NCBI GenBank assembly: GCA_009838075.1
Contig: VXSG01000111.1
Span: 22,801 to 86,800 of the forward strand
Source: Boseongicola sp. SB0665_bin_10
GTDB taxonomy: Bacteria > Pseudomonadota > Alphaproteobacteria > Rhodobacterales > Rhodobacteraceae
DNA length: 64,000 nt
Direction of reading: 5' to 3'
In this document: piece by piece, positions 32,331 to 41,720 of the stretch
Layout of the letters: every line of letters begins with the position of its first letter
Numbering within the stretch: the stretch's first letter is position 1
The notes under the pieces: generated by a model
Databases searched by the model: none
Told to the model about the DNA's origin: nothing
The model's input: only the letters and a program-made list of their open reading frames with translations
Made by a program: the position numbers and the translations under genes

Positions 32331-34430
32331 ATGCCTTCGCCGCCCGCCCTCCGCCTTGCGATCGATATCGGTGGAACCTTTACGGACACCGTCCTCGTCG
32401 ACGGTGGCGGGCGGATCCTGGCAACGGCCAAGACCCCGACAACTCCGCCCGAACCGGCGCTCGGCGCACTTGAGGGCGCCCGTCATGCCCTGATTGCGGC
32501 CTCGGCGGCCTGGGACGAAATCGGCGGCTTCATCCACGGCACCACGCTTGCCACCAATGCGCTGATCGAACGCCGGGGCGCGAGGGTCGGCACGATCACG
32601 ACCGAAGGCTTCCGCGACATCCTCGAAATTGCCTACGAGCGGCGCTACAGCCAGTATGCCATCAATCTCGAAAAGCCTGACCTGATAGTGCCTCGAACGC
32701 GGGCGTTCACCGTGGGCGGGCGCATGAACGCGCGCGGCGAGGAACTCGTTCCGTTCGACGAGGATGCGGTGGCGGCCCTGGCGGGACGGCTGGAGGCCGA
32801 GGGAATCGAGGCCGTCGCCATCTGCCTGCTTCATGCCTACGCGAACCCGAGCCACGAATTGCGGCTGCGCGAGATGCTCCGGATGGCGCTGCCGGAACCG
32901 GTGATTTCGGTCAGCCACGAGGTCAGCCCGGAAGCGCGCGAGTTCGACCGGCTGTGCACCACTGTCGCCAACGCCTACATCCAGCCGCTCATGTCCCGGT
33001 ATCTCGCGGACTTCGAGACGCGCTTCCGGAGCGCGGGACTGGCCTGCCCCATCCTGATGATGACCGCGAGCGGCGGCATGACCACTCTTGAGACCGCCGC
33101 GCGCCTTCCGGTACGGCTGGTCGAATCGGGCCCGGCAGGAGGCGCGATCCTGGCCGCACGGCTCGCCCGCGAGACCGGCGAGGGCAAGGTGGTCTCATTT
33201 GACATGGGCGGCACGACGGCCAAGCTCTGCCTGATCGACGACGGCCAGCCCCGGACCGCCCGGAAATTCGAGATCGCCCGCGCCGAACGGTTCGTCAAGG
33301 GTTCGGGCATGCCGGTCCGAATTCCAGTCATCGAGATGATCGAGATCGGCGCCGGCGGCGGCTCGATCGCCAATGTCGACCGGCTCGGCCGGGTTCGCGT
33401 CGGACCGCAAAGCGCTGGCGCGAACCCGGGACCGGCCGCCTTCGGGAATGGCGGCACGCAGCCGACGGTGACGGATGCCGACATCGTGCAAGGGCTCATT
33501 GCGCCGGACGGCTTCGCCGGGTCCAGCATCAGCTTGAACCCGGGCGCCGCCATGGCGGTGCTGAAATGCAAGGTCGGTGACGCCCTTGGTCTCGATCTTG
33601 ACCGCGCGGCGCTTGCGGTTACCGAGATCGTGGACGAGAACATGGCGGGCGCGGGACGAATGCACGCCGCGGATTCCGGGAGAATCCTTGACGACCGCAC
33701 CATGATCGCCATCGGCGGCAACGGTCCGCTTCATGCCACGCGCCTCGCCCGGCGAACCCGTGTGCGCACCGTTGTCATCCCGAAGAACCCTGGCGTCGGT
33801 TCCGCCGTGGGGTTCCTTCACGCACCGGTGTCCTTCGAAATCGTGCGATCGCGATACACGACGCTCGAGTCTCTCGACGTCGACGCAATCAACGGGTTCT
33901 TCGGAGACATGGCCAATGAGGCACGCACGGTTGTCAGGGCCGGCGCACCGGACGGGCCATTGACCGAGCGCCGGGTGGCATTCATGCGATATCATGGACA
34001 AGGACACGAAATCGAGGTCGCCGTCCCGGCCCGCGACCTGGAACCGACCGATGCGCATGGCCTGCGCAGCGCCTTCGAGGCAGGGTACAGCCGTCAGTTC
34101 AGCCGCACCGTTCCGGACATGAAGATCGAGATCCTGAACTGGGCGTTTCGTCTCGCTTCGGAGGTTCCGGACATCGACCCGGCACATGCCGCGGGGACGC
34201 CGTCCGCGGCAAGTCCCTCGGGATTCCGCATGATCCTCTGCGACGTCTCGGGAGAATGGCGCGAAGCCGCCGTCTACAAACGCGCGGACCTGCACGGCGG
34301 CGCCCGCCTGTCGGGGCCTGCACTGATCACGGAGCCGCAGACAACGACACTCGTGAGCGCGGATTTCGACGCAAGAGTGGACGGGGCGGGGAACATCTGG
34401 ATGACCCGGCAGGACGGAGCATTGCCATGA
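32331..34430 (+). CDS. hyuA: hydantoinase/oxoprolinase family protein, subunit A
   Basis: 'LAIDIGGTFTDTVLVDG', 'HGTTLATNALIERRGARVGTITTEGFRDILEI', 'SFDMGGTTAKLCLIDDG'. Confidence 0.96.
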   Translation: MPSPPALRLAIDIGGTFTDTVLVDGGGRILATAKTPTTPPEPALGALEGARHALIAASAAWDEIGGFIHGTTLATNALIERRGARVGTITTEGFRDILEIAYERRYSQYAINLEKPDLIVPRTRAFTVGGRMNARGEELVPFDEDAVAALAGRLEAEGIEAVAICLLHAYANPSHELRLREMLRMALPEPVISVSHEVSPEAREFDRLCTTVANAYIQPLMSRYLADFETRFRSAGLACPILMMTASGGMTTLETAARLPVRLVESGPAGGAILAARLARETGEGKVVSFDMGGTTAKLCLIDDGQPRTARKFEIARAERFVKGSGMPVRIPVIEMIEIGAGGGSIANVDRLGRVRVGPQSAGANPGPAAFGNGGTQPTVTDADIVQGLIAPDGFAGSSISLNPGAAMAVLKCKVGDALGLDLDRAALAVTEIVDENMAGAGRMHAADSGRILDDRTMIAIGGNGPLHATRLARRTRVRTVVIPKNPGVGSAVGFLHAPVSFEIVRSRYTTLESLDVDAINGFFGDMANEARTVVRAGAPDGPLTERRVAFMRYHGQGHEIEVAVPARDLEPTDAHGLRSAFEAGYSRQFSRTVPDMKIEILNWAFRLASEVPDIDPAHAAGTPSAASPSGFRMILCDVSGEWREAAVYKRADLHGGARLSGPALITEPQTTTLVSADFDARVDGAGNIWMTRQDGALP

Positions 34431-40194: not shown

Positions 40195-41720
40195 CCGGAA
40201 CCGCCCCAAGGCATCGGATCGCCATCGCCGGATTTCAGCACGAGACCAACAGTTTCGGCTACGGAACGGCAGGCATGACGGAATTCGAAATGGCGGATTC
40301 CTGGCCCGCCCTCGTTGAAGGCGATGCAGTGCGCGATGGCACGCGCGGCCTGAACCTGCCGATCGCCGGATTCATCGAGGCGGCGGAGGCGTCCGAAAGG
40401 ATTGAGCTCCATCCCGTCCTTTGGTGTTCCGCCGAGCCGTCCGGTCCTGTCACCGACCACGCGTTCGAGACGATCACGGCACGCATCCTTGACGGCATCG
40501 GCAGGGCCGCGCCGCTGGACGGCCTGTATCTTGATCTCCACGGCGCGATGATCACCGCAAGCCACGATGACGGCGAGGGCGAGCTGCTCCGCCGCATCCG
40601 TGCGCGGCTTGGTCCCGACCTGCCGATCGCCGTCAGCCTTGACATGCATGCGAACGTCACGAGGGACATGGTCCGTCACGCCAGCTCGATCAGCATCTTT
40701 CGCACCTACCCGCACCTCGACATGGGCCAGACTGGCGCCCGCGCCCTGTCCCGCCTGCTGCGCCTGCTCGAAGGCGAGCGGCCCGCGACAGCGTTTCGGC
40801 AGCTGCCCTACATCATCCCAATGCATGCCCAGTACACGGGTTCCGATCCCATGCGCAGGCTCTGCGGACTTGCGACCGAGATGTCGCGTGGAGCCATGGA
40901 TGTCGAACTCGCCGCCGGGTTCACCGGTGGCGACATCGCCGACTCCGGCCCCTCGCTGCTTGCCAGCGCCGTTGATCGCGCCAAGGCCGAAGCCGCGGCC
41001 GACGCGCTTCTCGAAGAGGCGCTCGCCGTCGAACCCGAATTCGACTGCACGCTCCTCACGCCCGAGGAAGCCGTGGAAGCCGCGCTGGCGCTTCCTCCCG
41101 GCTGGCCCGTCACGATCGCCGACGTGCAGGACAACCCCGGCGGCGGCGCGTCATCGGACACGACCGGACTTCTCAAGACGCTCCTGAACGCCCGGGGAAG
41201 GCAGGTCATCGTCGGTGTCATCCACGATCCCGCGGCGTCAGCCGAGGCGCACAGGCTCGGGACCGGGCACGCGTTCCGGATCAGCCTTGGCGGCAAGTCG
41301 GGCACCCCGGGCGATACGCCCCTCGACGCGCGCTTCCACGTGGAAGCACTGGGCAACGGGGAAGTCGCCTACCGAGGCGAGATGTACGGCGGCGGCACGG
41401 CCCGGATGGGTCCCACGGCGGTGCTTCGCCCGCTCGGGACGGACGCCGACCTCCGAATCGTGACCTCAAGCGTCCGCAACCAATGTCTCGACCGGGCCTA
41501 TTTCTCCCATGTCGGTCTCGTCCCCGAGAAAGCGGACATCATTGCGGTCAAGAGCACCGTTCACTACCGGGCCGAATTCGAGCCGATCAGCCAGGGCGTG
41601 ATCTCCTGTGGCGCGCCGGGAGCGCTTTCCTGTGACATCGGCCTGATTCCATATCGAAAGCTGCGCCCGGGCATTCGCCTTGGGCCGGGCGGACCCGTTC
41701 GGGTCGTGCCGCAAAAATAA
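40191..41720 (+). CDS. M81 family metallopeptidase (MlrC-like)
   Basis: 'RIAIAGFQHETNSFG', 'DLHGAMITASHDDGEGELLRRIR', 'VTIADVQDNPGGGASSDTTGLLKTLL'; probable TTG start overlapping the preceding TGA. Confidence 0.93.
   Translation: MTGTAPRHRIAIAGFQHETNSFGYGTAGMTEFEMADSWPALVEGDAVRDGTRGLNLPIAGFIEAAEASERIELHPVLWCSAEPSGPVTDHAFETITARILDGIGRAAPLDGLYLDLHGAMITASHDDGEGELLRRIRARLGPDLPIAVSLDMHANVTRDMVRHASSISIFRTYPHLDMGQTGARALSRLLRLLEGERPATAFRQLPYIIPMHAQYTGSDPMRRLCGLATEMSRGAMDVELAAGFTGGDIADSGPSLLASAVDRAKAEAAADALLEEALAVEPEFDCTLLTPEEAVEAALALPPGWPVTIADVQDNPGGGASSDTTGLLKTLLNARGRQVIVGVIHDPAASAEAHRLGTGHAFRISLGGKSGTPGDTPLDARFHVEALGNGEVAYRGEMYGGGTARMGPTAVLRPLGTDADLRIVTSSVRNQCLDRAYFSHVGLVPEKADIIAVKSTVHYRAEFEPISQGVISCGAPGALSCDIGLIPYRKLRPGIRLGPGGPVRVVPQK

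What the first reader, a model, noticed from the sequence alone, without database searches (positions are those of the whole stretch)
32331..41720. Seven-gene run joined entirely by 4-nt stop/start overlaps: candidate undescribed catabolic pathway
hyuA/hyuB (34427-34430), hyuB/aminotransferase (36073-36076), aminotransferase/racemase-like (37152-37155), racemase/PrpD (37892-37895), PrpD/2-hydroxyacid dehydrogenase (39226-39229) and dehydrogenase/M81 (40191-40194, TTGA) are six consecutive ATGA/TTGA overlaps, read directly. Such coupling implies a single pathway with stoichiometric translation. HyuAB usually open cyclic amides in an ATP-dependent way; Asp/Glu-racemase-like, M81, PrpD and D-2-hydroxyacid dehydrogenase enzymes could process a branched or cyclic amide-derived acid. 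I know of no described pathway with this exact set. Substrate identity is inference.
Basis: partly seen in the sequence, partly recalled or inferred. Interest (0 to 1): 0.78.

Follow-up and report, generated by a model that had tools for sequence, protein, structure and literature searches.

The report
Conserved unstudied hyuAB catabolic operon
A tightly packed block of genes found in many marine alphaproteobacteria, including this one (probably a sponge symbiont), appears to encode an uncharacterised pathway that opens a small ring-shaped amide with ATP and then breaks down the product, but what it eats is still unknown.

Summary
In detail: six consecutive 4-nt overlaps join hyuA, hyuB, a HisC-like aminotransferase, a two-cysteine isomerase/racemase, MmgE/PrpD, a D-2-hydroxyacid dehydrogenase and M81. 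It is the only run of six in this genome, but 4-nt overlaps are ordinary here (34% of close same-strand pairs; 0.13 to 2.2 such runs expected).

The biology is stronger than the overlaps. hyuA-hyuB-AT-rac is a fixed four-gene core in about 85 alphaproteobacterial loci, and its overlaps are conserved (75/85, 74/80, 76/84). prpD and dh orthologues co-occur with the core across 401 family genomes (26/29 vs 17/372; 21/29 vs 8/372), for prpD even when encoded elsewhere. M81 is peripheral: own genus plus two other lineages. Related loci add MttB-type methyltransferases, FAD/folate demethylases, a LysR regulator and a peptide/opine-type ABC importer.

No enzyme reaches any curated functional-family cut-off. 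The 'racemase' belongs to the maleate isomerase/arylmalonate decarboxylase clade; the 'PrpD' model is closest to iminodisuccinate epimerase and cis-aconitate decarboxylase.

Best reading: an undescribed pathway built of known enzyme kinds, in which ATP-dependent opening of an imported, possibly N-methylated, cyclic amide is followed by isomerisation, transamination, NADPH reduction and PrpD chemistry. Reaction order is inferred; the substrate is unknown.

The parts
29616..32075 (+). FAD-dependent oxidoreductase with folate-binding GcvT domain (dimethylglycine/sarcosine dehydrogenase type); likely N-demethylase, upstream partner in this genus
   Evidence: Pfam DAO, GCV_T, GCV_T_C; same position in all congeners; only 37% identical to the FAD-GCVT of other tetrad loci
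32331..34430 (+). hyuA: ATP-dependent hydantoinase/oxoprolinase-type subunit A (core gene 1)
   Evidence: PF01968, PF05378, PF19278; nearest solved chain N-methylhydantoinase 7hk5; motifs invariant in 83-85 loci
34427..36076 (+). hyuB: hydantoinase B/oxoprolinase-type subunit (core gene 2); starts inside the hyuA stop (ATGA)
   Evidence: PF02538, E 3.9e-144; NDPW..SGHLND and SHLVD motifs nearly invariant; overlap kept in 75 of 85 loci
36073..37155 (+). HisC-like fold type I PLP aminotransferase (core gene 3); ATGA overlap
   Evidence: PF00155; hisC model 236 bits, below the 276.55 cut-off; PLP Lys (FSKAYG) in 87/87; genuine hisC elsewhere in genome
37152..37895 (+). rac: two-cysteine isomerase/racemase of the maleate isomerase/AMDase clade (core gene 4); ATGA overlap
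   Evidence: PF17645; C81, C194, N18, Y133, N164 invariant in 90/90; AF2 model nearest maleate isomerase, TM 0.86
37892..39229 (+). MmgE/PrpD-family enzyme (epimerase/dehydratase/decarboxylase fold); ATGA overlap
   Evidence: PF03972, PF19305; D90, D93, H101 invariant; nearest fold iminodisuccinate epimerase, TM 0.77; co-occurs with rac
39226..40194 (+). D-2-hydroxyacid dehydrogenase, probably NADPH-preferring; ATGA overlap
   Evidence: PF02826; catalytic Arg, Glu, His in 56/56 loci; Arg after beta-2 in 53/56
40191..41720 (+). M81 (MlrC-like) metallopeptidase/amidohydrolase; TTGA overlap; lineage-specific member
   Evidence: PF07364, PF07171; nearest solved chain microcystinase C 7ylq; cluster of 10 proteins only
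41811..43382 (+). Family 5 solute-binding protein (peptide/opine/nickel type)
   Evidence: PF00496; nearest solved chain AgaA; recurs beside tetrads in other genera
43480..44436 (+). ABC transporter permease 1 (Dpp/Opp type, from neighbourhood)
   Evidence: Conserved in congeners, 97-99% identical
44446..45369 (+). ABC transporter permease 2 (Dpp/Opp type, from neighbourhood)
   Evidence: Conserved in congeners
45374..47005 (+). Fused two-domain ABC ATPase of the importer
   Evidence: PF00005 two stretches, oligo_HPY

Best explanation
The block is a conserved, uncharacterised catabolic gene cluster. Shown: its core is hyuA-hyuB-aminotransferase-rac, joined by conserved 4-nt overlaps in many Alphaproteobacteria; a PrpD-family enzyme and a D-2-hydroxyacid dehydrogenase are genetically linked to it, in cis or elsewhere in the genome; in this genus an M81 amidohydrolase, an FAD/folate N-demethylase and a peptide/opine-type ABC importer sit on the same strand. 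Inferred mechanism: the ABC system imports a small amide-containing, possibly N-methylated compound; M81 (where present) trims an amide; HyuAB opens a cyclic amide (lactam, imide or hydantoin type) with ATP; the two-cysteine Rac changes configuration at an acidic carbon (racemisation or cis-trans isomerisation); the HisC-like enzyme removes the amino group to give a 2-oxo acid; the dehydrogenase reduces it with NADPH to an (R)-2-hydroxy acid; the PrpD-type enzyme epimerises or dehydrates that acid. The substrate is unknown.
For: Domains. Core order in about 85 loci across Rhodobacterales, Pelagibius and Rhizobiales/Kiloniellaceae MAGs. Overlaps conserved: hyuA/hyuB 75/85, hyuB/AT 74/80, AT/rac 76/84, rac/prpD 33/34. 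Phylogenetic profile in 401 family genomes: rac-prpD 26/29 vs 17/372 (p 2.6e-26) and rac-dh 21/29 vs 8/372 (p 2.9e-22), with prpD far from the core in G103, G158, G242, G250, G289, G318 and G442. PrpD-DH fused ORF in L140. Catalytic residues invariant. Purifying selection, dN/dS 0.1-0.3 for the core. Downstream genes vary in ways that would fit a 2-oxo acid product: NADPH-type DH, ThDP decarboxylase plus aldehyde dehydrogenase (L179), DHDPS-type aldolase (L136 and other loci). N-demethylation partners MttB, FAD-GCVT or Sox in related loci.
Against: No substrate, activity or transcript was measured. Four loci lack the aminotransferase between hyuB and rac (L105, L160, L171, L176), so it may not be central. 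Many loci have the core without prpD or dh nearby, so the order after Rac is a guess. MttB and FAD-GCVT partners are clade-restricted: the window's FAD-GCVT is only about 37% identical to those of the MttB-containing loci, and the genome carries 8 MttB and about 18 GcvT-domain genes. HyuAB homologues also include carboxylases.
Confidence: 0.55

Rival explanations
1. It is a version of the known hydantoin/creatinine route: HyuAB opens (N-methyl)hydantoin, the racemase acts on hydantoin, and the product enters sarcosine/glycine metabolism through the FAD enzymes.
For: Nearest solved HyuA/B chain is an N-methylhydantoinase; FAD-GCVT or sarcosine-oxidase genes recur nearby.
Against: No N-carbamoyl hydrolase domain in the run and none noted as a recurrent neighbour; Rac is not in the hydantoin racemase branch (TM about 0.6 vs 0.86); aminotransferase, PrpD and D-2-hydroxyacid dehydrogenase have no role in that route.
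Confidence: 0.1
2. It is a lactam route like caprolactam or 5-oxoproline degradation: ATP-dependent lactamase followed by an aminotransferase.
For: CapA and CapB are the best NCBIfam hits (448 and 189 bits); lactamase plus aminotransferase is the caprolactam logic (PMC6061476).
Against: Far below both 1000-bit cut-offs; the aminotransferase is HisC-like, whereas the caprolactam enzyme is an omega-aminotransferase; that route has no Rac, PrpD or DH counterpart known to me.
Confidence: 0.12
3. It degrades a sulfonate related to cysteate, with Rac and the aminotransferase acting on cysteate and sulfopyruvate.
For: ComDE-like subunits directly after rac in L179; DHPS/sulfopyruvate-like genes beside the core in several Ruegeria loci; a D-cysteate sulfo-lyase homologue behind dh in L126.
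Against: The Ruegeria genes are on the opposite strand; the L126 gene is over 200 nt away and interrupted by a stop codon; the L179 subunits miss the sulfopyruvate decarboxylase cut-offs; none of these genes is in the window's run.
Confidence: 0.07
4. It is a (hydroxy)ectoine-type pathway, because Rac's best NCBIfam hit is EutA.
For: TIGR02990 EutA 109 bits.
Against: Cut-off is 318; no eutB, eutC, eutD or eutE in the run.
Confidence: 0.03
5. HyuAB here is an ATP-dependent carboxylase of the acetone/acetophenone carboxylase kind rather than an amidohydrolase.
For: Same superfamily; carboxylase chains among the solved matches.
Against: Only two subunits are encoded; lactamase and hydantoinase chains match much better (E 9e-114 vs 2e-53 to 1e-72 for HyuA).
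Confidence: 0.08

Closest known systems
Caprolactamase CapAB plus aminotransferase (Pseudomonas jessenii)
   Same: Two-subunit ATP-dependent ring opening followed by transamination
   Different: Omega-aminotransferase there, HisC-like here; equivalog cut-offs not met; Rac, PrpD and DH absent there
ATP-dependent N-methylhydantoinase / HyuAB hydantoin clusters
   Same: HyuA and HyuB family, racemase-superfamily gene nearby
   Different: No carbamoylase; Rac belongs to the maleate isomerase/AMDase clade
Maleate cis-trans isomerase / arylmalonate decarboxylase / EutA clade
   Same: Fold (TM 0.86), both catalytic cysteines, Asn/Tyr/Asn positions
   Different: Only 22-28% identical to solved members; substrate unknown
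Iminodisuccinate epimerase and cis-aconitate decarboxylase (MmgE/PrpD family)
   Same: Fold and catalytic Asp/His positions
   Different: 19-23% identical; partners and substrate differ; 2-methylcitrate dehydratase profile not met
Ectoine utilisation eutABCDE
   Same: EutA superfamily member in a marine alphaproteobacterial catabolic operon
   Different: No other eut gene; HyuAB instead of EutD
Microcystinase C (MlrC, M81)
   Same: M81 domains
   Different: 175 bits against a cut-off of 999; no other mlr gene among the 12 genes examined

Membership tests
Hydantoin utilisation (HyuAB + racemase + carbamoylase) | HyuA and HyuB domains | tested here: met
   PF01968/PF05378/PF02538 well above cut-offs
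Hydantoin utilisation (HyuAB + racemase + carbamoylase) | N-carbamoyl amino acid hydrolase in the cluster | tested here: not met
   No such domain among ten proteins of the stretch scanned; none noted among recurrent neighbours
Hydantoin utilisation (HyuAB + racemase + carbamoylase) | Racemase of the hydantoin racemase branch | tested here: not met
   Nearest solved folds maleate isomerase and AMDase; hydantoin racemase 2eq5 TM about 0.6
Hydantoin utilisation (HyuAB + racemase + carbamoylase) | Activity on hydantoins | not testable with these tools
   Needs purified enzyme
Caprolactamase CapAB | NCBIfam equivalog cut-offs (1000 bits each) | tested here: not met
   447.8 and 189.4 bits
Acetone/acetophenone carboxylase | Additional carboxylase subunits and equivalog scores | tested here: not met
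   Two subunits only; 268 bits or less against 1250-1500
HisC | hisC equivalog score at least 276.55 | tested here: not met
   236.4 bits; a 303-bit hisC lies on contig C54
Ectoine utilisation | EutA score and eutBCDE partners | tested here: not met
   109 of 318 bits; partners absent from the run
Maleate isomerase/AMDase fold clade | Fold, two catalytic Cys, carboxylate-binding Asn/Tyr/Asn | tested here: met
   the residue roles are from memory of the maleate isomerase literature
Maleate isomerase/AMDase fold clade | Isomerase activity on maleate | not testable with these tools
   Needs purified enzyme
MmgE/PrpD family | Both Pfam domains above cut-off | tested here: met
   111.9 and 97.5 bits against 32.1
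2-methylcitrate dehydratase PrpD | NCBIfam PrpD equivalog score | tested here: not met
   19.6 of 950 bits
M81 / MlrC | M81 domains | tested here: met
M81 / MlrC | Microcystinase MlrC score | tested here: not met
   174.7 of 999 bits

The most novel reading that the evidence does not exclude
An undescribed aerobic degradation pathway for an abundant marine N-methylated compound holding a cyclic amide, in which an MttB-superfamily methyltransferase and FAD/folate demethylases prepare the substrate for the HyuAB-aminotransferase-Rac core, and PrpD plus an NADPH-dependent D-2-hydroxyacid dehydrogenase finish it; in sponge symbionts it is fed by a peptide/opine-type importer and an M81 amidohydrolase.
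Probability: 0.3. Interest if true: 0.75.

Novelty: new variant of a known kind. Interest (0 to 1): 0.5.

Why it matters
Sponge symbionts were reported to be enriched in hyuA and hyuB without a firmly known role (PMC5649159). This work ties one such pair to a defined, co-occurring set of partners present in culturable marine bacteria (Ruegeria, Roseovarius, Tateyamaria, Leisingera, Cribrihabitans), so its substrate can be sought by knockouts and exometabolomics. If the substrate is a common marine metabolite, it would give a function to several of the many unassigned HyuAB, MmgE/PrpD, AMDase-clade and MttB genes in Rhodobacterales.

Tried and rejected
Homarine: considered because of the marine N-methyl context; the 2026 homarine paper (PMC13236597) is not held, so an overlap with that pathway was not excluded by reading it. 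Sulfonate/cysteate route: followed because of ComDE, HpsN and CuyA-like neighbours; rejected as main reading (opposite strand, interrupted gene, sub-threshold profiles). Ectoine: rejected by profile and missing partners. GyrB, aspartyl-tRNA synthetase, AbrB, VTT and GMC genes adjacent to some loci look like incidental neighbours. The sigma-70 and terminator scan gave nothing above chance. Paper searches with ten term sets found no description of the cluster. The plasmid search gave annotated copies in Ruegeria and Leisingera but no functional names beyond family level. The FAD-GCVT cluster was checked for lumping of different families: the window's FAD-GCVT is not a close orthologue of those in the MttB-containing loci, so the N-methyl link is weaker for this window than for its relatives.
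Full report
What was checked. The six junctions were read at the reported coordinates: ATGA at 34427, 36073, 37152, 37892 and 39226, TTGA at 40191. The genes carry the expected domains: HyuA, HyuB, class I/II aminotransferase, AMDase/Asp-Glu racemase superfamily, MmgE/PrpD, D-2-hydroxyacid dehydrogenase and M81. Upstream on the same strand lies an FAD/GcvT-domain oxidoreductase (29616-32075, gap 255 nt). 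Downstream is a family 5 binding protein with two permeases and a fused ATPase (41811-47005, gaps 90, 97, 9 and 4 nt).

Are the overlaps remarkable? With a simple GC-based ORF caller, 484 of 2498 same-strand neighbours in the own genome share a 4-nt NTGA overlap, or 34% of close pairs. The run of six is the longest and the only one of its length; 0.13 to 2.2 would be expected under independence, depending on which pairs are counted. So the overlaps alone show a compact operon, not equal translation of the products. The M81 TTG is partly a by-product of dh ending in Tyr-TGA; congeners keep TTGA, while the other M81-bearing lineages have CTGA or TTAG there.

Conservation. In the own genus the whole 12-gene stretch is present at 82-99% protein identity, with dN/dS about 0.03-0.3. 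Congener contigs are titled Boseongicola or Silicimonas MAGs. That these come from sponges is my reading of the isolate names (for example the IRC and SB series), not a tool result. In 29 of 401 genomes of the family a Rac orthologue exists. Reading 20-kb neighbourhoods there and 80 named loci shows hyuA-hyuB-AT-rac as a near-invariant core: of 69 loci with enough flank, 66 hold hyuA, 66 hyuB and 66 AT, 43 hold dh, 32 prpD and 9 M81. These loci are not fully independent: the own genus is represented several times, and L037 and L161 are the same contig. The 4-nt overlaps are conserved at hyuA/hyuB (75/85), hyuB/AT (74/80), AT/rac (76/84) and rac/prpD (33/34), less so at prpD/dh (18/33). Carriers include Ruegeria, Roseovarius, Tateyamaria, Nioella, Cribrihabitans, Pelagibius and MAGs titled Rhizobiaceae, Nitratireductor, Hyphomicrobiaceae and Kiloniellaceae, plus Ruegeria and Leisingera plasmids.

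Functional linkage beyond proximity. In the same 401 genomes a close PrpD orthologue (E at most 1e-110) is present in 26 of 29 Rac genomes but 17 of 372 others (Fisher p 2.6e-26); the dehydrogenase in 21 of 29 against 8 of 372 (p 2.9e-22); a close MttB in 9 of 29 against 9 of 372 (p 4.7e-7). These tests ignore phylogeny, though almost all genomes are from different genera. In G103, G158, G242, G250, G289, G318 and G442 PrpD lies far from the core (about 200 kb or more away, or on another contig), so the link is not only an effect of shared DNA. In a Rhizobiaceae MAG PrpD and the dehydrogenase form one open frame (L140). A second recurrent module, [class V PLP enzyme, FAD-GCVT, LysR, PrpD, MttB, sometimes DH or heterotetrameric sarcosine oxidase], stands beside the core (L041, L098, Ruegeria sp. 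SCSIO 43209 L190) or elsewhere in the same genome (L205 and L206 for G242 and G250; L042 for G038). The window's operon can be read as core plus PrpD and DH joined into one unit.

What the enzymes probably do. HyuA and HyuB: nearest solved chains are an N-methylhydantoinase and a hydantoinase/5-oxoprolinase pair; carboxylases are more distant. All scores are below the curated caprolactamase and carboxylase cut-offs. By family knowledge (PMC6061476) subunit A phosphorylates the lactim form and B hydrolyses it. Rac: the AF2 model (pLDDT 88.7) is closest to maleate isomerase and arylmalonate decarboxylase (TM 0.86 and 0.84), with Asp and hydantoin racemases at 0.5-0.6. Both cysteines (C81, C194) and N18, Y133, N164, which align with the maleate-binding Asn/Tyr/Asn of maleate isomerase, are invariant in 90 of 90 loci. 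The aminotransferase has the PLP lysine in 87 of 87 and is not the genome's histidine enzyme. The dehydrogenase keeps Arg, Glu and His in 56 of 56 and has Arg after the second strand in 53 of 56, which in this family usually means NADPH and thus the reducing direction (inference). PrpD: the model (pLDDT 80.5, only 12 sequences) is closest to iminodisuccinate epimerase (TM 0.77) and cis-aconitate decarboxylase (0.75), less to 2-methylcitrate dehydratase (0.6-0.7).

Inferred pathway. Import, optional amide trimming (M81) and N-demethylation (FAD-GCVT, MttB or Sox in relatives), ATP-dependent ring opening (HyuAB), stereochemical or cis-trans change (Rac), transamination to a 2-oxo acid (AT), then alternative fates: reduction (DH) with PrpD chemistry in many loci, ThDP decarboxylase plus aldehyde dehydrogenase in L179, and a DHDPS-type aldolase behind dh in Roseovarius, Nioella and other loci. 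That several different enzymes able to handle 2-oxo acids follow the core would fit the aminotransferase product being a 2-oxo acid. This is an inference: the order of steps and the substrate are not shown, and four loci lack the aminotransferase between hyuB and rac.

Comparison with the known. It works like the caprolactam route in its first two steps but fails the membership tests for CapAB. It fails the tests for a hydantoin cluster (no carbamoylase, different racemase branch), for ectoine utilisation and for HisC, PrpD and MlrC as named enzymes. No paper in the open-access library searched describes the set; subscription papers, including the 2026 homarine paper, were not readable, so prior description cannot be excluded. 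Sponge symbiont genomes were earlier found enriched in hyuA and hyuB (PMC5649159).

Verdict.

Noticed in passing
window 15056-22678, minus strand: Another putative demethylation cluster: MttB-family protein, two FAD-GCVT oxidoreductases and an HTH-cupin regulator. The FAD-GCVT at 19651-22101 has a 73% relative upstream of the core in L128.
   Followed up: partly
L113, L120, L122 (Ruegeria), downstream of rac, opposite strand: Genes that look like a dihydroxypropanesulfonate/sulfopyruvate module (HpsN-like, SDR, ComDE-like, TRAP transporter) sit next to the core in several Ruegeria loci; names from sequence inspection, not from profile hits.
   Followed up: partly
L126:13261-14274: Homologue of D-cysteate sulfo-lyase split by an in-frame TAA, about 200 nt behind dh.
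   Followed up: partly
L140:5712-8018: Single open frame joining PrpD and D-2-hydroxyacid dehydrogenase, in a MAG titled Rhizobiaceae group.
   Followed up: partly
L189 (Leisingera methylohalidivorans plasmid): No hyuA or hyuB is annotated before the aminotransferase-rac pair, and the aminotransferase is listed as an unusually long gene; the core may be degraded there.
   Followed up: no
window 25261-28236: Large frame with a weak autotransporter beta-domain match (just under the cut-off) between the two demethylase regions.
   Followed up: no
window 47925-48608, minus strand: A 227-aa frame that reads like the C-terminal half of a helicase, just past the ABC importer; could mark an insertion or rearrangement edge.
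   Followed up: no
own genome: Eight MttB-family genes and about 18 GcvT-domain proteins in one 4.8 Mb genome, a heavy load of methylated-amine genes.
   Followed up: no
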